36,961 nucleotides of DNA from a virus, in the IMG/VR virus record IMGVR_UViG_3300035181_001968, positions 1 through 36,961 of that record; one strand, 5' to 3'. Positions within the stretch are counted from its first letter, which is position 1. Every line of letters begins with the position of its first letter. Of this stretch, positions 5,327 to 36,634 are shown one piece after another. The notes under the pieces are model-generated. The model had not been told where the DNA came from, did no database searches, and saw only the letters and a program-made list of their open reading frames with translations. The translations under genes and the position numbers were made by a program.

Positions 5327-5953
5327 ATGAGAAAGCCAGAAACTCAATACATCATTCGTGGATTCAACCTAGTTGATGAAACATTTCAAGCTCCTACTGG
5401 ATTGATTGAAGAAAAAAAATCGTTCAAAGAGATGGTAGTAGTAAAACAACATGAAGCTATCGTTGCTATGATGTGTGATGATGACTTCATAACCATGACG
5501 GTCCCTTATATAAATTCGATCAAGTATACTCTTGATGTCCTGGGAAGTGATGAGATGGAAGCGCTTGATCCCAAGAATATGGTTTATGTGGTAGATCTGA
5601 AGATCACGATAGCTGAAACTGACAAGTTGGAAGTTAAGCGCTTGAAGAGTTCTATCCGTGAAGATCTTAAGCGCTGGGCTGAAAAATCCAGGGTAAAAAA
5701 TCTGCGTGGATGGCGTGTCAATGCTATCAAGACTCCCAAGTATGAATACCTTGATGATGTTACTGTAGTGAGCACCCAAGTGATTCTAAGTAATGCAGTG
5801 ATTTACAGTGACATGACTTGTACTATCTCTCCACTTGATTACATATCTGGGATGACTGACCTTAGGCATCTTTACAAACGTCTGAAAAAAGATCTACCTT
5901 TGGTTGAACTTCGTTACAAGCACTCACTGTTTGGTAGCGGAGAGGTGAAATGA
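5327..5953 (+). CDS. conserved phage protein, unknown function
   Basis: A 208-residue soluble protein with a good ribosome binding site (AAAGGA) before the ATG. I do not recognise the family. The middle (residues about 90-150) is rich in charged helices (KLEVKRLKSSIREDLKRW) and the rest is mixed alpha/beta. There is no signal peptide or membrane segment. Its stop overlaps the start of the next gene (ATGA), so the two are co-translated. It sits among nucleotide and ADP-ribose genes. Confidence 0.7.
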   Translation: MRKPETQYIIRGFNLVDETFQAPTGLIEEKKSFKEMVVVKQHEAIVAMMCDDDFITMTVPYINSIKYTLDVLGSDEMEALDPKNMVYVVDLKITIAETDKLEVKRLKSSIREDLKRWAEKSRVKNLRGWRVNAIKTPKYEYLDDVTVVSTQVILSNAVIYSDMTCTISPLDYISGMTDLRHLYKRLKKDLPLVELRYKHSLFGSGEVK

Positions 5954-18711: not shown

Positions 18712-18821
18712 TATTCATGTTCTTTAATCAAAAGAGCTATAAGGGTTTTGTCTTCTGGACAAATTTAATATACAATCAGTAAAAATGTATTATAATATCA
18801 AAATATCATATGGAGATTCAA

Positions 18822-19586
18822 ATGGGACGGTTACATGAAATTCTAGCAGTTGAAAAAGGTACTACCGCAGCTGCAAATAAACTTCTTCAAGATACTGAAC
18901 ACAAGTTCGGTAATGAAAACTTTTTCAAGGGCTTTTCAAAGTCACTGACAATGATTGAAGGTACTCCAGAAAATCAAAAACTTGAAGAAGCAAACCGTTC
19001 TGACCGAGCAGTGCCGACTACTGTGTACGAAACATTGGAATACGCGTTAGCTGCATGGTCAAAAGCTGAAGATGTGATCTTTCAGAAGAACAAAACCAAT
19101 CAAATTGCTATCAGCAACATTGAATTTCGTGGTGATGTAATCGCACAAGATATTCCTGTTGATGAACTCATGGGTCTTGAATCCCGTCTTGAAGGGATCC
19201 GCAAAGTATTTGATCGGATGCCGACTCTTGATGCAGCTAAATCATGGGAAATTGATACAGGTAAGGGTAAGTACATCTGGAAGGCAGTCAACCCAGAAAT
19301 CACGACCAAGACTGAAAAGATCTTGGTACCTGTTGAGATGTCTAAAGCCACTGAACATCACCCTGCTCAAGTTCAAGCAGTAACGAAGGACCAAGTTGTA
19401 GGTAACTATGTTACCCTGAACTGGTCAGGTGCTACAACGTCAGCTCAAAAAGCTGAAGCTCTAGCTACTATTGATGAACTGATCTCTGAAGTAAAGAAGG
19501 CCCGGATGCGGGCCAACAGTGTAGAAACTGTTAATGACAAGATTGGAAACGTGATTGTTGATCTGTTACTTGCTCCACTGAAATAA
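18822..19586 (+). CDS. conserved protein of unknown function
   Basis: A 254-residue soluble protein. The ATG at 18822 is preferred over 18810 because GGAG (18812-18815) is correctly spaced for it. The opening MGRLHEILAVEKGTTAAANKLL, then FFKGFSKSLTM, and the middle VIAQDIPVDELMGLE with RLEGIRKVFDRMPTL belong to a family I have seen in phages and bacteria (opening of the type xLHExLAVEKxLxxxA) with no known function. It stands alone behind a strong early promoter, directly before the permuted tRNA genes, and is probably made early. Confidence 0.7.
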   Translation: MGRLHEILAVEKGTTAAANKLLQDTEHKFGNENFFKGFSKSLTMIEGTPENQKLEEANRSDRAVPTTVYETLEYALAAWSKAEDVIFQKNKTNQIAISNIEFRGDVIAQDIPVDELMGLESRLEGIRKVFDRMPTLDAAKSWEIDTGKGKYIWKAVNPEITTKTEKILVPVEMSKATEHHPAQVQAVTKDQVVGNYVTLNWSGATTSAQKAEALATIDELISEVKKARMRANSVETVNDKIGNVIVDLLLAPLK

Positions 19587-19688
19587 CTAGGCGCTTCAGC
19601 TTTTAGTACTTAGTTTTAGCTTTTTGCTCTTTAAAATTTTTAGTAGTAAAGGATTATGGCATCGTTATCATTATCATTATTCATTAGA

Positions 19689-19798
19689 TAGCTTACCATC
19701 TTTATTTCCTGTCTTTTGACGTGAAGGTTCGAGTCCTTCCTCCCACACCCATGTGGGAGTGGTGAAATTGGTAAACACCTGGAAACTTAGGTAAGCTA
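19689..19798 (+). tRNA. circularly permuted tRNA-Leu(UAG)
   Basis: The 3' half precedes the 5' half. The 3' half (19705-19746) has anticodon-stem strand TTTCC, a 13-base class II variable arm (GTC-TTTT-GAC), T-arm GAAGG-TTCGAGT-CCTTC and acceptor strand CTCCCAC. After ACCCAT comes the 5' half (19753-19790): GTGGGAG, TG, D-arm GTG...CAC, anticodon strand GGAAA and CTTAG. Acceptor (7/7) and anticodon (5/5) stems pair perfectly. GGTAAGCTA (19790-19798) after the 5' half pairs 9/9 with TAGCTTACC (19689-19697) before the 3' half. TTATGGC (19654-19660) and GCCATAA (19828-19834) add a 7-bp outer helix. Joining CTTAGG to A gives a normal Leu loop CTTAGGA. No 5' half lies upstream. Confidence 0.8.
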
Positions 19799-19896
19799 GC
19801 TATGACTATAGTTATATTTTTCGTATCGCCATAACACCTGTATCATAAAGCTGTTGTTGTACTAGTTGGGAGTTTTTTAATTACAGAGATCATTCT

Positions 19897-19994
19897 ATAA
19901 TTAGCGATTGGAAGTCGGTGGTTCAAATCCATCTCCCGTCACCACTATATGACGGGGTACCTCAGTGGCCAGAGGACCAATAAAATTTAGTTAT
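19897..19994 (+). tRNA. circularly permuted tRNA, isotype unclear
   Basis: The 3' half (19907-19944) reads ATTGG, AAGTC, T-arm GGTGG-TTCAAAT-CCATC, TCCCGTC, ACCA. The 5' half (19951-19981) follows after CTATAT: GACGGGG, TA, D-arm CCTC-AGTGGCCA-GAGG, A, CCAAT. Acceptor (7/7 with one G.U) and anticodon (5/5) stems pair. TAGTTAT (19988-19994) pairs with ATAATTA (19897-19903), and ACTAGTTCAA (20012-20021) with TTGTACTAGT (19857-19866; 9 of 10 pairs). Loop bases on the two sides (AAAATT and GCG) do not show an obvious U33 and anticodon, so I give no amino acid. Confidence 0.72.
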
Positions 19995-20077
19995 CATAAA
20001 CTCACTCAGTTACTAGTTCAATGATGGGGACGAAAATCCGAAGATTCCTATACATAGCGGGCAATGCTAGTCTAGGG

Positions 20078-20121
20078 GTCTTTCTAAATTGTTAAATTCT
20101 AATAATTTAGAAAGACTTTAT
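20078..20121 (+). terminator. terminator after the permuted tRNAs
   Basis: A 13-bp perfect stem GTCTTTCTAAATT (20078-20090) with AATTTAGAAAGAC (20104-20116), then TTTATTT. It closes the transcript that carries both permuted tRNAs. Confidence 0.75.
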
Positions 20122-20149
20122 TTACTTTTAATCTAAAGCATGTTATAAT
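20121..20149 (+). promoter_or_regulatory. T4-like early promoter for the tRNA cluster
   Basis: TTTACT (20121-20126), 17 bases, TATAAT (20144-20149). It lies directly behind the terminator and 13 bases before tRNA-Gly. Confidence 0.8.
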
Positions 20150-20161
20150 AAATAAAATTAT

Positions 20162-25107: not shown

Positions 25108-25257
25108 ATGAGCATAAATGAACATACTGGCGAAAAACAAGCCACTAAAGCAGCATCTGACAGCTATCGTGAAAATTATGATAAAATTTTCAGAAAAGAA
25201 AAAACTGCTAAAAAAGAAACAGAAAAAGAAGCTGATAAAAGTAATGAAATGAAGTAA
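25108..25257 (+). CDS. 49-residue protein with SYRENYDKIFR motif
   Basis: The ATG at 25108 opens 49 codons ending KSNEMK-stop. DSYRENYDKIFRKEK (residues 18-32) matches the 98-residue protein at 21838, and the upstream EHTGEKQATKAA also parallels its N-terminus. The tail is lysine- and glutamate-rich. AGTAAATACTA (a late-promoter-like box) lies about 17 bases before the start. The paralogy is the main reason to accept it as a gene. Confidence 0.55.
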   Translation: MSINEHTGEKQATKAASDSYRENYDKIFRKEKTAKKETEKEADKSNEMK

Positions 25258-25265
25258 AATAAATG

Positions 25266-25293
25266 TTTACTTTCTAGCTCACTAAGATATAAT
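25266..25293 (+). promoter_or_regulatory. T4-like early promoter before the large tRNA array
   Basis: TTTACT (25266-25271), 16 bases, TATAAT (25288-25293). The first transcribed bases would be the 23-bp helix of the tRNA-like element. Confidence 0.75.
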
Positions 25294-25301
25294 GTTTAAA
25301 C

Positions 25302-25463
25302 TAGATGTTGTTAAGGAATTCAAGTAGTTTAGCGGCGAGAACGGAGCTGAAGGCTAGTTCATCAGAATTAAGGTACCTTGATTCTGAAAAGAAAACCGTG
25401 AGGTGCTTTCGTGCAGGTCAGACCTTGGTTCGAATCCAAGCTTGAATTCCTTAACAGCATCTA
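25302..25463 (+). tRNA. interrupted tRNA-like element with 23-bp flanking helix
   Basis: Acceptor ATTCAAG (25318-25324) pairs with CTTGAAT (25441-25447). A D-like arm (GTTT...GAAC) and a T-arm CTTGG-TTCGAAT-CCAAG are clear. The acceptor pairing extends outward without a break to 23 bp (25302-25324 with 25441-25463, one G.U). Between the D- and T-arms are about 76 bases instead of about 26. They include a 12-bp inverted repeat (TCAGAATTAAGG/CCTTGATTCTGA). One reading is a split anticodon arm: CGGAG-CTGAAG (Phe-like GAA), about 50 extra bases, then C-TTTCG. The isotype is uncertain. Confidence 0.5.
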
Positions 25464-25515
25464 AGTCAAAGGCATGTTAATGACGAGACTTTGTTGCTCG
25501 TGTATAAATAAAATT

Positions 25516-25641
25516 ATGAAAGCTATTGCAATGAAAACTAAACCCTGTATACAAGCTACAATTATCGATCAGCATATTGAACGAGAGTTTAATATGCCAG
25601 CAGATAATCATGGGAAACCCTTGCAATGGAAAGTGGAATGA
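25516..25641 (+). CDS. possible 41-residue protein
   Basis: ATG at 25516 opens MKAIAMKTKPCIQATIIDQH, ending KPLQWKVE-stop. An exact TATAAATA box (25503-25510) lies immediately upstream, but no ribosome binding site is seen. A terminator follows at 25677. Could be a gene remnant. Confidence 0.35.
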   Translation: MKAIAMKTKPCIQATIIDQHIEREFNMPADNHGKPLQWKVE

Positions 25642-25676: not shown

Positions 25677-25710
25677 AAGGGACCTTAAAATAAGGTCCCT
25701 TTCTTATTTT
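25677..25710 (+). terminator. intrinsic terminator
   Basis: AAGGGACCTTA (25677-25687) pairs with TAAGGTCCCTT (25691-25701), loop AAA, then TCTTATTTT. Confidence 0.85.
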
Positions 25711-25917
25711 GGTTAAAAGAAAATTAAAACCGGTCTTCAATCTGGAGAATGGTTTAAGATTATTAAGGATGATGATACTATAGAAATTTTTATCAAGTTG
25801 TAAGCTAAACTCGAAAAGGCACACCCGGTGTCCACAGACGAGGATAAACAAACTGTAGTAAGTAGGGGGGTTCTGGAGGCTAAAGCCGATAGACAAGCAT
25901 ATGATGTATATGCGGCT
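25711..25917 (+). other. gene-free stretch with two short coding relics
   Basis: Two adjacent frames look coding but have no start codon: KKIKTGLQSGEWFKIIKDDD...FIKL-stop (ending near 25803) and AKLEKAHPVSTDEDKQTVV...DVYAAASVV-stop (ending inside tRNA-Val). They are probably fragments of lost genes. No promoter is evident. Confidence 0.35.
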
Positions 25918-26216: not shown

Positions 26217-26219
26217 AAT

Positions 26220-26295
26220 GGTTGTAAAGTGTCTATAGATACACGGGACCCTGTCAAGGTTCAATAGTTGGGAGCGTTACCCACTACAACCGCCA
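26220..26295 (+). tRNA. tRNA-Asp(GUC), alternative elbow
   Basis: Acceptor GGTTGTA/TACAACC, D-arm GTGT-CTATAGAT-ACAC, anticodon loop CTGTCAA, T-loop AGCGTTA, GCCA encoded. It has A8, no GG in the D-loop and no TTC in the T-loop. Confidence 0.85.
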
Positions 26296-26307
26296 AAATG
26301 ATAAAAT

Positions 26308-26382
26308 ACAGCATGAGTCAGCTAGGGTGGACACTTCCCTTTCAAGGAAGAGAGACGGGGGCAGAACCCGTATGCTGTGCCA
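26308..26382 (+). tRNA. tRNA-Glu(UUC), alternative elbow
   Basis: Acceptor ACAGCAT/ATGCTGT, D-arm GTC-AGCTAGGGTG-GAC, anticodon arm CTTCC-CTTTCAA-GGAAG, T-arm ACGGG-GGCAGAA-CCCGT, GCCA encoded. G8; T-loop starts GGC instead of TTC. Confidence 0.86.
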
Positions 26383-26400
26383 GATGTTAGAGTGTTTTGG

Positions 26401-26475
26401 GGTGACTTGATTGTGATAGTAGCAACCCTCTCTGTGAAAGAGGTAGAACGGGAGCGGAACCCGTAAGTCACCCCA
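26401..26475 (+). tRNA. tRNA-His(GUG), alternative elbow
   Basis: G-1 (26401) faces C73. Acceptor GTGACTT/AAGTCAC, D-arm TTG-TGATAGTAG-CAA, anticodon arm CCTCT-CTGTGAA-AGAGG, T-arm ACGGG-AGCGGAA-CCCGT, CCA encoded. G8, D-loop AG, T-loop AGC. Outer bases TTTGG/CCAAA extend the acceptor pairing. Confidence 0.86.
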
Positions 26476-26493
26476 AAGCGCTTTATGAAAAAT

Positions 26494-26948: not shown

Positions 26949-27022
26949 GGGATTCAAACATTAAAGTGATGTAACTGGCTTTTAACCAGTAAAACAGGGG
27001 GCAGTACCCTGGAGTCCCACCA
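26949..27022 (+). tRNA. tRNA-Lys(UUU), alternative elbow
   Basis: Acceptor GGGATTC/GAGTCCC, A8-A9, D-arm ACAT-TAAAGTG-ATGT, anticodon arm ACTGG-CTTTTAA-CCAGT, T-arm CAGGG-GGCAGTA-CCCTG, ACCA encoded. Confidence 0.88.
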
Positions 27023-27384: not shown

Positions 27385-27460
27385 TCTGTCTAAGCTAATC
27401 TAGTGAAAGCGCTGCGCTGAAAACGCAGAGAGGTTGGAGCAAAACCAACAGACAGAACCA
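27385..27460 (+). tRNA. tRNA-Phe(GAA), alternative elbow
   Basis: Acceptor TCTGTCT/AGACAGA, A8-A9, D-arm GCT-AATCTAGTGAA-AGC, anticodon arm CTGCG-CTGAAAA-CGCAG, T-arm GTTGG-AGCAAAA-CCAAC, ACCA encoded. Confidence 0.88.
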
Positions 27461-27645: not shown

Positions 27646-27737
27646 CCTACGGCAGCTCTCGGTAGAGCAGGCGGTCTTATAAACCGTTTAGGGCAGATAA
27701 CCCCCAGGTCTAGGTTCAACTCCTAGCCGTAGGACCA
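27646..27737 (+). tRNA. tRNA-Ile(UAU) with long variable arm
   Basis: Acceptor CCTACGG/CCGTAGG, D-arm GCTC-TCGGTA-GAGC, anticodon arm GCGGT-CTTATAA-ACCGT, T-arm CTAGG-TTCAACT-CCTAG, ACCA. About 22 bases of variable region include GGG...CCC, as in class II tRNAs. Confidence 0.82.
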
Positions 27738-33517: not shown

Positions 33518-34315
33518 TTGAAAACGTTTAAACAGTATATTCAAGAAGCATCAGTGACTCCAATCAAATCAACTCCGATTGATTTACAAGAGGCATTTAA
33601 AGTCATTAAGAAGAACTGTTCCGATTCATTGTGGATGTTCGAATTTAAGACTCCGATATGGAGAGGAGAAAAACAACAAAATTCAATCTTAGGAAAAGAT
33701 GGAGTTGCTGTTATTGACACGACGAAATCAGAACGGAAAAGCAAAAATACAAGTAATTGGTACACGTTGATTATCGACAATAGTCCAAAATATAAAGAAT
33801 ATCCAAAAAGAAGTCAATCGCTTATCTGCACGAATAATATTAAATCCGCTGAGGTATATGGAACCCCTATGGCAGTTATTCCATTTAATAGCGCTAAAAT
33901 TGGAGTAGTCAATGCTCCAGATATATGGGATAAAACGATTACTATGGGCGATGAAAGAATGGACATCGAAAGTGCAAACAATTATTTTAATATTCTTAGA
34001 GAATTCGGACTTTCCGACACCAATTGGCAATCATTCGTTGATTTTGACAAGAAACTGAAAACCGATGAAAACTTTAGAGAGGAAGTAGAAGATAGTGTTG
34101 AAGACAAACCTTTAGAAGGCTTGTTGGATGATTTCGTTAATAAAGTCAGAAAAATGTATGATTATCTAGGATTTGAGTTGCTAACCCCAAAACAATATGA
34201 AAAAAGACCGACGACAAGTCGTGAAACAGAAATGTGGGTTGGTGGAGAAGTTGTGTGCCTTAGTGAAAATATTTTCAAAACACTATGTAACGAGTTCAAA
34301 ATTGAAAACATTTAA
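33518..34315 (+). CDS. putative injected ADP-ribosyltransferase, copy 1
   Basis: 265 residues, TTG start. Residues 1-11 MKTFKQYIQEA resemble the N-terminal capsid-targeting peptide of T4 internal head proteins, with a prohead-protease site I-Q-E|A. The rest has the order of an R-S-E ADP-ribosyltransferase: W48-R49-G50; SERKSKNTSNWYTLIIDN; KRSQSLICT (S99/S101) followed by a helix and G; AVIPFNSAKIGVVNAPDIW; and E236-T-E238 in RETEMWVGGEVV (ExE). I therefore infer a mono-ADP-ribosyltransferase packaged in the head and delivered with DNA, as with T4 Alt. It overlaps copy 2 by 14 bases. The enzymatic call comes from motif reading, not alignment. Confidence 0.65.
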   Translation: MKTFKQYIQEASVTPIKSTPIDLQEAFKVIKKNCSDSLWMFEFKTPIWRGEKQQNSILGKDGVAVIDTTKSERKSKNTSNWYTLIIDNSPKYKEYPKRSQSLICTNNIKSAEVYGTPMAVIPFNSAKIGVVNAPDIWDKTITMGDERMDIESANNYFNILREFGLSDTNWQSFVDFDKKLKTDENFREEVEDSVEDKPLEGLLDDFVNKVRKMYDYLGFELLTPKQYEKRPTTSRETEMWVGGEVVCLSENIFKTLCNEFKIENI

Positions 34316-35099
34316 ACAATATATTCAAGAAGCATCAGTGACTCCAATTAAATCGACTCCGATTGATTTACAAGAGGTAAAAGAAATTATTAAAAAGAAC
34401 TGCTCTGATTCATTGTGGATGTTTGAAACCAGAACAGCGATATGGAGAGGTGAAAAGCAACAAGATTCAATCTTAGGAAAAGATGGAGTTGCTATCATTG
34501 ACACAACAAAATCGGAACGGAAAAGTGCATCCGCGAGTAATTGGTACACGTTAATTATCGACAATCATCCAAGATATAAAGAATATCCAAAAAGAAGCAA
34601 GTCACTTATCTGTACGAATAATATAGAAACTGCTGAAGCATATGGAACCCCTATGGCAATTATACCATTTAATAGCGCTAAAATTGGAGTAGTCAATGCT
34701 CCAGATATATGGGATAAGACGACTACTATGGGAGATGAAGAAATGGACCTATTACGTGCAAACAGTTATTTTAATATTCTTAGAGAATTCGGACTTTCAG
34801 ATACTAACTGGCAATCATTCATTGAGTTCGATAAGAAACTGAAAACCGATGAAAACTTTAGAGATTCAGTAGAAAATAGCGTTAAAGGCAAACCTTTAGA
34901 GGACTTATTCGATGATTTTGTTAATAAAGTTAGAAAAATGTATGATGATCTAGGATTTGAATTGCTAAATCCAAAACAATACGAAAAGAGACCGACGACA
35001 AGTCCTGAAACAGAAATGTGGATTGGTGGAAAAGTTCTATGTCTTCGTGAAAGCATTTTCAAAACATTGTGTAGCGAGTTCAAAATTGAAAACATTTAA
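34302..35099 (+). CDS. putative injected ADP-ribosyltransferase, copy 2
   Basis: 265 residues from the TTG at 34302, which lies inside the last codons of copy 1; the start is fixed by identity of MKTFKQYIQEAS with the other copies and by GAGTTC upstream. It is very close to copy 1 along its whole length. WRGEKQQ, ERKSASASNWYTL, KRSKSLICT and PETEMWIGGKV keep the R, S and ExE positions. Differences cluster around residues 140-155 (MGDEEMDLLRANSYF) and in the central acidic stretch. A longer in-frame reading back to 34197 would lie inside copy 1 and is rejected. Confidence 0.65.
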   Translation: MKTFKQYIQEASVTPIKSTPIDLQEVKEIIKKNCSDSLWMFETRTAIWRGEKQQDSILGKDGVAIIDTTKSERKSASASNWYTLIIDNHPRYKEYPKRSKSLICTNNIETAEAYGTPMAIIPFNSAKIGVVNAPDIWDKTTTMGDEEMDLLRANSYFNILREFGLSDTNWQSFIEFDKKLKTDENFRDSVENSVKGKPLEDLFDDFVNKVRKMYDDLGFELLNPKQYEKRPTTSPETEMWIGGKVLCLRESIFKTLCSEFKIENI

Positions 35100-35871
35100 A
35101 CAATATATTCAAGAAGCATCAGTGACTCCAATTAAATCGACTCAACTTGATCTACAAGAAGTAGAAGAAATTATTAAAAAGAACTGCTCTGATTCATTGT
35201 GGATGTTTGAATCTAAGACTCCAATATGGAGAGGTGAAATGCGACAAGATTCAATCTTAGGAAAAAATGGAGTTGCTATCGTTGACACAACAAAATCGGA
35301 ACGAAAAAGTCAAAATACAAGTAATTGGTACACGTTAATTATTGACAATCATCCAAGATATAAAGAATATCCAAAAAGAAGTCAATCGCTCATTTGTACG
35401 AATGATATCGAAACTGCTAAAAGATATGGAACCCCTATGGCAATTATACCATTTAATAATGCTAAAATTGTGATAGTAAATGATCCAGATATATGGTATA
35501 AAATAATTGTAATGGGCAATGAAAGAATGATGATAGAAAATGCAAACGATTATTTTGATATTCTTAGAAAATTCGGACTTTCAGATACCAATTGGCAGTC
35601 ATTCATTGATTTTGATAAGAGATTGAAAACCGATGAAAACTTTAGAGATTCAGTAAAAGATAGTGTTGAAGGAAAACCAATAGAGAGTTTGCTGGATGAT
35701 TTTGTTAATAAAGTTAGAAAAATGTATGGTGATCTAGGCTTTAAATTGCTGACTCCAAAACAATACGAAAAGAGACGTGAAACAGAAATATGGATTGGTG
35801 GAGAAGTTGTGTGCCTTAGTGAAAGCATTTTCGAATCATTGTGTAGCAAGTTCAAAAATGAAAACGTTTAA
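35086..35871 (+). CDS. putative injected ADP-ribosyltransferase, copy 3
   Basis: 261 residues from the TTG at 35086, again overlapping the previous gene by 14 bases. WRGEMRQ, KRSQSLICT and RETEIWIGGEV are kept, while the loop before ExE has lost the four residues PTTS present in copies 1 and 2. The region MAIIPFNNAKIVIVNDPDIWYKIIVMGNERM differs most from the other copies, where the consensus is SAKIGVVNAPDIW, so target or regulatory contacts may differ. The targeting peptide MKTFKQYIQEA is unchanged. Confidence 0.63.
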   Translation: MKTFKQYIQEASVTPIKSTQLDLQEVEEIIKKNCSDSLWMFESKTPIWRGEMRQDSILGKNGVAIVDTTKSERKSQNTSNWYTLIIDNHPRYKEYPKRSQSLICTNDIETAKRYGTPMAIIPFNNAKIVIVNDPDIWYKIIVMGNERMMIENANDYFDILRKFGLSDTNWQSFIDFDKRLKTDENFRDSVKDSVEGKPIESLLDDFVNKVRKMYGDLGFKLLTPKQYEKRRETEIWIGGEVVCLSESIFESLCSKFKNENV

Positions 35872-36634
35872 ACAATATATTCAAGAAGCATCAGTAATTC
35901 CGATTAAATCGACTCAACTTGATCTACAAGAAGTAGAAGAAATTATTAAAAAGAACTGTTCTGATTCGTTGTGGATGTTTAAACGCAGAAGAACAATATG
36001 GAGAGGTGAAAATGATCTGAATTCAATTTTAGGAAAAGATGGAGTTGCTATCATTGACATAACAAAATCAGAGCGGAAAAGTCAAAATACAAGTAATTGG
36101 TACACGTTAATCATCGACAATAGTCCAAAATATAAAGACTTTCCAAAAAGAAGTCAATCGCTAATTTGTTCGAGTAATATAGAAATTGCTAAAGCATTCG
36201 GGCCCCCTATGGCAATCATACCATTTAATAGCGCTAAAATTGGAGTAGTTAATACTCCAGATATGTGGAATAAATCAGTTATTATAGGCGGCAAAAAAAT
36301 GGACGTCGAAGTAGCAAATAAGGTTTTTAATCCGCTTAAAAAATTTGGGCTTTCTGATACCAATTGGCAGTCATTCATCGATTTTGACAAAAAACTAAAA
36401 ACCGACAAAAAATTTAGAGAGGAAGTAGAAGATGATGCTGAAAGCAAACCTTTAAAGAGCTTATTTGATGATTTTGTTGTCAAAATTAGAGGACTATATG
36501 ACAATCTAGGATTCGAATTGCTAACTCCAAAACAATATGAAGAAAGAACAAAGAAAAGACGACGCGAAACAGAAATGTGGATTGGTGGAAAAGTCGTGGC
36601 TCTTAGTAAAGAAGTTTTTGAAACAATATTATAA
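35858..36634 (+). CDS. putative injected ADP-ribosyltransferase, copy 4
   Basis: 258 residues with a normal ATG (35858), unlike the TTG of copies 1-3. It is the most diverged copy: MFKRRRTIWRGENDLN, RSQSLICSSNIEIAKAFGPP, MWNKSVIIGGKKMDVEVANKVFNPL and KKRRRETEMWIGGKVVALSKEVF. R, S and ExE positions remain. It ends earlier (FETIL-stop) and does not overlap the next gene; 11 bases containing GAGTTC separate them, so the array's overlap pattern breaks here. Confidence 0.63.
   Translation: MKTFKQYIQEASVIPIKSTQLDLQEVEEIIKKNCSDSLWMFKRRRTIWRGENDLNSILGKDGVAIIDITKSERKSQNTSNWYTLIIDNSPKYKDFPKRSQSLICSSNIEIAKAFGPPMAIIPFNSAKIGVVNTPDMWNKSVIIGGKKMDVEVANKVFNPLKKFGLSDTNWQSFIDFDKKLKTDKKFREEVEDDAESKPLKSLFDDFVVKIRGLYDNLGFELLTPKQYEERTKKRRRETEMWIGGKVVALSKEVFETIL

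What the first reader, a model, noticed from the sequence alone, without database searches (positions are those of the whole stretch)
25302..25463. tRNA-like element clamped by a 23-bp helix and containing about 50 extra bases
The acceptor stem continues outward to 23 bp with a single G.U, far beyond any normal tRNA precursor. Between the D- and T-arms there are about 76 bases with a 12-bp internal hairpin. The promoter at 25266 puts the first transcribed bases at the helix edge. It may be an intron-containing tRNA, a tRNA mimic or decoy, or a stable scaffold RNA.
Basis: partly seen in the sequence, partly recalled or inferred. Interest (0 to 1): 0.75.

Follow-up and report, generated by a model that had tools for sequence, protein, structure and literature searches.

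The report
Phage tRNA mimic closed by helix
A large phage carries a small RNA gene that folds like a transfer RNA but is sealed by a long double-stranded stem, close to two other RNAs laid out like bacterial Y RNAs (known tRNA mimics), so it is more likely a tRNA mimic than a working tRNA.

Summary
25302-25463 has a 23-bp terminal helix (22 Watson-Crick, one G.U), an intact tRNA elbow and 81 nt between D- and T-arms; no window shuffle gives so strong an inverted repeat. It lies in a predicted promoter-to-terminator unit with the start at the helix edge. No close homolog was found. Context decides the reading. The window is collinear with a 345-kb phage (G009). At the same place G009 has three helix-clamped tRNA-like RNAs, one circularly permuted like YrlA, and it encodes a TROVE (Ro60) protein. 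The window itself holds two permuted YrlA-type RNAs at 19.7-20.0 kb that Rfam misses; a model built only from Y RNAs beside other Ro60 genes finds them (46.7 and 37.0 bits). A tRNA-His at 26.4 kb is also clamped, as in two relatives, with compensating changes. The element is unpermuted, lacks the YrlA module and has no U33. Best reading: a non-translating tRNA mimic that works like a Y RNA but is not a YrlA member. The intron reading is disfavoured. Function is inferred; no RNA data exist here, and no Ro60 gene lies in this 37-kb fragment.

The parts
25266..25293 (+). sigma70-like promoter TTTACT-16-TATAAT; transcription start inferred at about 25300
   Evidence: same extended motif TTTACTTT..GATATAAT in relatives L007, L008, L015. 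Start site is inference.
25302..25324 (+). 5' arm of the 23-bp terminal clamp (last 7 nt act as acceptor 5' strand)
25327..25342 (+). D-arm, loop AGCGGCGA with G18G19; preceded by U8 A9
   Evidence: low probability (0.03) in a purely thermodynamic ensemble
25344..25360 (+). anticodon-like arm GAGCT-GAAGGCT-AGTTC, 5 bp and 7-nt loop in tRNA register, no U33
25363..25386 (+). 10-bp hairpin where a long variable arm would be
   Evidence: pair probability 0.95-0.96
25395..25404 (+). small ACC-GTGA-GGT hairpin in the remaining insert
25424..25440 (+). T-arm CTTGG TTCGAAT CCAAG, flush with the clamp
   Evidence: matched by model R1 positions 1-17 only, 14.0 bits
25441..25463 (+). 3' arm of the clamp; no CCA at the acceptor end
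25677..25711 (+). intrinsic-terminator-like hairpin ending the predicted transcript
26388..26485 (+). second clamped element: tRNA-His(GTG) inside a 22-bp helix
   Evidence: orthologs clamped in L007 and G009
19685..19802 (+). permuted YrlA-type RNA Y-A: clamp 19685-19697/19790-19802, then T-arm, acceptor hairpin, D-arm (module 19723-19779)
   Evidence: R1 46.7 bits, E 2.2e-13
19851..20027 (+). permuted YrlA-type RNA Y-B (module 19917-19976; outer clamp weak)
   Evidence: R1 37.0 bits, E 2.6e-10

Best explanation
The element is a dedicated noncoding RNA gene of a large phage, by its promoter type probably read by host polymerase: a tRNA mimic with Y-RNA-like logic. A two-turn terminal helix seals both ends, so the molecule has no free acceptor end and no CCA and should not be charged or used by the ribosome. 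The tRNA elbow (D-loop/T-loop) is kept so that tRNA-binding proteins still recognise it; the anticodon-like arm has lost U33. Most likely it acts as an RNA ligand or bait: the helix is held by a Ro60/TROVE-type protein or another dsRNA-binding partner, and the tRNA-like head docks an elbow-binding enzyme, as YrlA does with PNPase, DusA and TruB. Shown by computation: the anatomy, the excess over chance, the promoter and terminator motifs, two permuted Y-type RNAs in the same window, clamped tRNA-like RNAs at the syntenic place in G009, and a TROVE gene in G009. Inferred: expression, lack of processing, the protein partners, and a role in tRNA damage or defence conflicts.
For: Helix beyond chance. 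Collinearity with G009 and synteny: MKLSEIK gene (54% identity), then clamped RNA(s), then tRNA-Val-Arg(acg)-Asn in both, with one extra Arg(ccg) in G009. G009 has three clamped tRNA-like RNAs there (22, 23, 22 bp), one permuted with 30 bits to YrlA RF02553, and a TROVE protein (89.9 bits). Two YrlA-type RNAs in the window. RNAs beside Ro60 genes in other phages share the gross layout: in 4 of 8 TROVE loci (L281, L283, L284, L287) they are about 142-197 nt with 14-29 bp clamps and a T-arm. Some of those (CcrColossus 2266-2407, Marchewka 2559-2708) look unpermuted too, by my reading of the sequence.
Against: No Ro60 gene in the 37-kb fragment. In G009 no T-arm was found near the TROVE gene, so the gene-RNA adjacency seen at the other Ro60 loci is absent. 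The element lacks the YrlA permutation and the inner motifs (UGGCGUAG, UACUUCG, GUUCC) seen by eye in Y RNAs beside other Ro60 genes. It scores only as a T-arm with R1 (14.0 bits) and not at all with RF02553. No homolog, hence no covariation. The D-arm is not favoured thermodynamically (0.03). Clamps also occur on an ordinary-looking tRNA-His, which argues for a processing role instead.
Confidence: 0.5

Rival explanations
1. A precursor tRNA whose outer helix is a processing or protection handle (for instance an RNase III site of about two turns) from which a product is released; the element would be a diverged member of the same class as the clamped tRNA-His.
For: The tRNA-His at 26388-26485 has a 22-bp clamp and intact anticodon loop; orthologs in L007 and G009 keep an outer helix with paired changes. 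Clamp lengths cluster near 22 bp.
Against: The element has no U33, no CCA and 81 nt between D- and T-arms. None of the 14 ARAGORN tRNAs of the window has a leader-trailer helix scoring above 10.0, so the array does not need such handles.
Confidence: 0.16
2. A tRNA gene with a short intron in the anticodon loop (tRNA-Thr CGT, 59 nt).
For: A relative, G009, has a tRNA-Leu with a 38-nt anticodon loop, so anticodon-loop insertions exist in this group.
Against: G.G mismatch in the stem, splice site at 31/32, stem probability at most 0.09; too short for a group I intron. Default ARAGORN and Rfam tRNA do not detect the element.
Confidence: 0.1
3. A decayed tRNA relic whose acceptor stem was extended outward by template switching (quasi-palindrome growth), with no function.
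For: No close homolog in 50,697 phage records or by the IMG/VR patterns tried. Inverted repeats near tRNA stems are natural seeds for such events (inference). The adjacent clamps in G009 share strands.
Against: 23 bp with a single G.U and an intact elbow implies recent origin or selection; promoter-terminator framing; syntenic clamped RNAs in G009; clamp kept in 3 of 3 tRNA-His orthologs.
Confidence: 0.14
4. A cis-acting 5' leader: a tRNA-like element upstream of a small ORF (25516-25641), comparable to the yjdF riboswitch.
For: It is the first part of a predicted transcript that runs over a short ORF to a terminator. tRNA-like leaders can raise translation (PMC9142559, passages read).
Against: The small ORF has no detectable similarity to the one at the same place in G009. 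A TATAAATA motif at 25503 just before it could be its own promoter. A 23-bp closed helix suits an independent RNA better (inference).
Confidence: 0.1

Closest known systems
Bacterial Y RNA YrlA (RF02553)
   Same: Long stem made by the 5' and 3' ends, tRNA-like head with D- and T-arms, size class (YrlA 90-150 nt per PMC8394870; here 162), presence in a phage with other Y-type RNAs
   Different: YrlA is circularly permuted against tRNA (PMC11472068); the element is not. No RF02553 match, no conserved inner motifs, no Ro60 gene in the fragment.
Clamped RNAs of jumbo phage G009 (233477-232943)
   Same: Same syntenic place, 22-23 bp clamps, T-arm inside; #1 is 161 nt against 162 nt here
   Different: No sequence similarity beyond the T-arm. 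#3 is permuted, #2 encloses 214 nt; neighbouring clamps share strands.
Clamped tRNA-His(GTG) of the same phage group
   Same: Acceptor stem continued outward to about 20-22 bp; element, tRNA-His and Y-A clamps of this window all begin TAGA
   Different: Complete anticodon arm with U33 and normal tRNA length between the arms
yjdF riboswitch (tRNA-like leader)
   Same: tRNA-like fold at the 5' end of a transcript without a free acceptor end
   Different: No match in Rfam scans; no shown link to the downstream ORF

Membership tests
YrlA / bacterial Y RNA | large stem formed by 5' and 3' ends | tested here: met
   23 bp
YrlA / bacterial Y RNA | permuted module T-arm, acceptor hairpin, D-arm | tested here: not met
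   D-arm precedes T-arm; strict scanner finds only Y-A and Y-B in the window; R1 matches only the T-arm
YrlA / bacterial Y RNA | score to Rfam RF02553 | tested here: not met
   no match at E up to 10 in 25200-25600 or E up to 1 in the record; note that Y-A and Y-B are missed too
YrlA / bacterial Y RNA | Ro60 (TROVE) protein in the same genome | tested here: inconclusive
   none in the 37-kb fragment, present in the collinear relative G009
YrlA / bacterial Y RNA | binds Ro60/Rsr and PNPase | not testable with these tools
   needs pull-down
functional tRNA | anticodon arm of 5 bp and 7-nt loop with U33 | tested here: not met
   GAGCT-GAAGGCT-AGTTC has A at 33
functional tRNA | found by tRNA models (default ARAGORN, RF00005) | tested here: not met
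functional tRNA | elbow residues G18G19, T-loop TTCRA, U8/A14 | tested here: met
   sequence, (tRNA numbering is recalled knowledge)
intron-containing tRNA | anticodon stem restored on removing the insert | tested here: inconclusive
   only with a G.G mismatch; probability 0.09 or less
tmRNA | tmRNA covariance model or ARAGORN call | tested here: not met
   ARAGORN -m finds nothing; Rfam no match

The most novel reading that the evidence does not exclude
This phage group tags a set of RNAs (permuted Y RNAs, an unpermuted tRNA mimic and one of two tRNA-His genes) with a roughly two-turn terminal clamp whose end sequence is alike within one genome. The clamp would be recognised by one phage factor (a Ro60-like protein or nuclease), making a clamped tRNA pool that is withheld from translation and serves as bait for tRNA-cleaving host defences or as a scaffold for RNA repair with the phage's Rnl1 ligase.
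Probability: 0.22. Interest if true: 0.82.

Novelty: new variant of a known kind. Interest (0 to 1): 0.6.

Why it matters
Phage Ro60 genes are known in some jumbo phages, but their RNA partners can escape annotation: Rfam's YrlA model missed both Y-type RNAs of this window. Here a simple permuted-module model finds them, and near them lie an unpermuted, helix-sealed tRNA mimic and a helix-sealed tRNA-His. That makes a concrete test possible: whether phages keep sealed tRNA look-alikes to tether or distract tRNA-acting enzymes during infection.

Tried and rejected
Intron reading: weak. tmRNA: no match. Rfam at E up to 10 on 25200-25600: six chance-level matches, two of which overlap the element and both on the minus strand. 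Close homologs: blastn 'distant' in 50,697 phage records gave 2 short chance matches; an IMG/VR pattern on D-arm/anticodon region gave 3 coding chance matches; a pattern on T-arm/acceptor gave 1 coding chance match. Protein neighbours 23693 and 23267 gave no IMG/VR relatives. The window's vWA protein (22211) is not similar to the G009 TROVE protein. The small ORFs after the element in window and G009 show no BLASTP similarity, so I do not call them homologous. A T-arm RNA beside the G009 TROVE gene was looked for and not found.

Caveats on my own tools: RF02553 at low score rings in 13 of 14 control genomes, and R1 gives 40.5 bits to a place in G013 that lies across two tandem tRNAs (tRNA calls), so such scores alone do not prove a Y RNA. 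Y-A and Y-B are accepted because no tRNA is called at 19586-20161 and their acceptor hairpins have tight loops (6 and 10 nt by the strict scanner). Their outer clamps (Y-A 16.8, Y-B 16.4) only just exceed the 95th percentile (15.6) of 200 random places. The MAFFT alignment of the three tRNA-His is not in structural register in the outer helix; the paired changes were read by eye. My best-clamp routine gave tRNA-His 15.6, against 31.6, because its search box was badly placed. In one search the helicase set was empty by a naming error; it was redone (79 loci, 2,252,660 strand-bases, 0 hits). With relaxed settings the permuted scanner gives many chance hits in G009 and G012, which I did not use except that it includes clamped element #3.

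AlphaFold of the DUF7873 protein (window 18810-19586) with a 2-row alignment was useless (mean pLDDT 36).

Full report
What is there. The window is a 36,961-base virus fragment with a T4-type Rnl1 RNA ligase, a PARP, a UvrD-like helicase and a tRNA array at 20.1-32.6 kb (14 ARAGORN genes; 12 Rfam matches). At 25302-25463 the two ends pair over 23 bp with one G.U; inside are a D-arm just after U8-A9 and a T-arm flush against the 3' strand. MFE z-score is -6.7. In 60 dinucleotide shuffles of the whole window the best inverted repeat within 330 bases scored 29.6; the element scores 35.8 and the tRNA-His at 26388-26485 scores 31.6.

Internal fold. ARAGORN with introns allowed proposes tRNA-Thr(CGT) with a 59-nt intron. 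This needs a G.G mismatch and a 31/32 splice; its stem has probability 0.09 or less when D- and T-arms are forced. Under the same constraint a contiguous 5-bp/7-nt arm in anticodon register (25344-25360) has 0.44-0.45 and the 10-bp hairpin at 25363-25386 has 0.99-1.0. I therefore read the region as a degenerate anticodon arm without U33 followed by a long variable-type hairpin and about 37 further bases. Without constraint the D-arm has probability 0.03, so the elbow rests on sequence, not on energy.

Transcription. TTTACT-16-TATAAT at 25266-25293 is the best promoter-like site of the region, and an 11-bp terminator-like hairpin lies at 25677-25701. The extended promoter motif recurs in relatives L007, L008 and L015. 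This is inference from motifs.

Relatives. The helicase finds 79 IMG/VR loci. The nearest with tRNA arrays are L007, L008 and L015; L015 lies in a 345-kb record, G009. Of 27 window proteins tested, 10 have a tblastn match in G009 at E up to 1e-4 (one of them short and weak), in collinear order from about 267 kb to 219 kb. Around the element the order is the same: the MKLSEIK gene (54% identity), the RNA locus, then tRNA-Val(tac), Arg(acg), Asn(gtt), with an extra Arg(ccg) in G009. G009 has three clamped elements at that place: 233477-233317 (22 bp, 161 nt, T-arm of 4 bp), 233334-233075 (23 bp, T-arm, acceptor CGCTCTCG/CGAGAGCG) and 233092-232943 (22 bp). The third is permuted (T-arm, acceptor hairpin, D-arm) and is G009's best match to YrlA RF02553, 30 bits, under the gathering score of 69. 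G009 also encodes a TROVE/Ro60 protein (89.9 bits in Pfam). TROVE was found in 2 of 13 records searched, the window included (G009 and G012), and not in one further unrelated record.

What phage Y RNAs look like. The G009 TROVE protein matches 114 of 50,697 phage records. I fetched 8 such loci of the 40 listed. In 4 of 8 (L281, L283, L284, L287) the clamp scan finds RNAs of about 142-197 nt with 14-29 bp clamps and a T-arm; in L282 and L288 the one T-arm-bearing repeat looks like chance in or near coding sequence. RF02553 reaches 28-50 bits in 7 of 8, though the L287 match lies across tandem tRNAs. A strict scanner for T-arm, acceptor hairpin and D-arm gives 10 hits in 6 of these 8 loci. In 78 unrelated loci (1.43 million strand-bases) it gives 2 hits, both in L230, and L230 proved to carry a Ro60 gene just downstream (TROVE 123 bits, vWA_Ro60 218 bits). 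In 79 helicase loci it gives 0 hits. It gives 1 hit each in G006 (a tRNA neighbourhood) and in G011 right after the DUF7873 gene, and 0 strict hits in G009, G012, L007/L008 and the G013-G015 pieces.

Y RNAs in the window itself. The scanner gives 2 hits in the window, at 19723 and 19917, and none in 40 shuffles on both strands. The MFE fold of 19680-19810 shows clamp, T-arm, acceptor hairpin and D-arm. A covariance model (R1) trained on 11 permuted modules from Ro60 loci, none from the window, gives 46.7 bits (E 2.2e-13) and 37.0 bits (E 2.6e-10) at these places; the next window match, across tandem tRNAs, is 18.0 bits. The element gets only its T-arm, 14.0 bits. Rfam reports neither Y RNA. 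So the phage very probably makes Y-type RNAs, and the element is not one of the permuted kind.

Clamped tRNA-His. The window's tRNA-His(GTG) at 26.4 kb, not called by ARAGORN, is enclosed in a 22-bp helix; orthologs in L007 (140-237) and G009 are clamped too. Read by eye, the window helix TAGAGTGTTTT/AAAGCGCTTTA differs from L007 GAGTGTACTT/AAGTACACTT by a two-pair insertion on both strands and U.G to U-A changes, and G009 AAGTGTACA/TGTACATTT by further paired changes. L007 (or its near twin L008) and G009 each also have an unclamped tRNA-His(GTG). Among 168 ARAGORN tRNAs (overlapping loci counted more than once) the L007 clamp was the strongest leader-trailer helix. Clamp ends resemble one another within a genome (TAGA in the window, AAGT in G009), which suggests a shared partner or origin; this is a small-sample remark.

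Reading. The element is best described as a sealed, unpermuted tRNA mimic that works like a Y RNA. It fails the permutation and sequence tests of YrlA, so I do not file it there. The literature gives a frame: YrlA has a large end stem and a tRNA-like domain modified by DusA and TruB and tethers Rsr to PNPase (PMC8394870, passages); Y RNA superposes on tRNA with circular permutation (PMC11472068, passages); the YrlA head was proposed as a competitive inhibitor of an anticodon nuclease (PMC7790460, passages); a small subset of jumbo phages have ROT/TROVE proteins (PMC7824862, passages); a Vibrio jumbo-phage paper notes a Ro60-related protein and says several phages have YrlA (PMC7765460, passages); phage tRNAs can defeat tRNA-cleaving defences (PMC11555353, abstract). 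Searches for sealed or permuted phage tRNAs in print listed nothing on this arrangement, but most subscription papers are not held and two key Y RNA reviews could not be read.

Limits. One sequence, no orthologs of the element, no expression data, and a fragment without a Ro60 gene. The function is inference.

Noticed in passing
window 18810-19586 and L109:10001-10765: A DUF7873 protein (54% identical between the two phages) sits immediately before permuted Y-RNA-type modules in both the window and G011; it may belong with the Y RNA locus. No paper in the library mentions DUF7873.
   Followed up: partly
window 26308-26378, 26402-26471, 26949-27018, 27385-27456: Four tRNAs (Glu TTC, His GTG, Lys TTT, Phe GAA) have T-loops GGCAGAA, AGCGGAA, GGCAGTA, AGCAAAA in place of TTCRANN; three of the four are missed by both ARAGORN and Rfam. 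A fifth, Asp-like, at about 26217-26296 has AGCGTTA (read by eye).
   Followed up: partly
window 27646-27737; L015 2351-2450: tRNA-Ile(TAT) with a long variable arm in both phages, loop CAGATAA or CAGATTA; the window copy nearly reaches the tRNA-Sec model cut-off (46.4 against 47 bits).
   Followed up: no
L092 4158-4268 (reverse strand numbering; G009): tRNA-Leu with a 38-nt anticodon loop holding a hairpin, as if a short intron were present.
   Followed up: no
L015 4134-4860 (G009): A tRNA-Lys-like gene split in the anticodon region by an ORF that looks like a homing endonuclease (read by eye).
   Followed up: no
L145 reverse strand 5741-5912 (G015): A 25-bp perfect clamp around 172 nt with two T-arms, in a phage with only 40% helicase identity.
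   Followed up: partly
G009 233477-232943: The arms of the three neighbouring clamps overlap, so one strand can pair with either neighbour: possible mutually exclusive folds.
   Followed up: no
window 33518-36634: Four consecutive similar ORFs of 265-300 aa (tandem paralogs).
   Followed up: no
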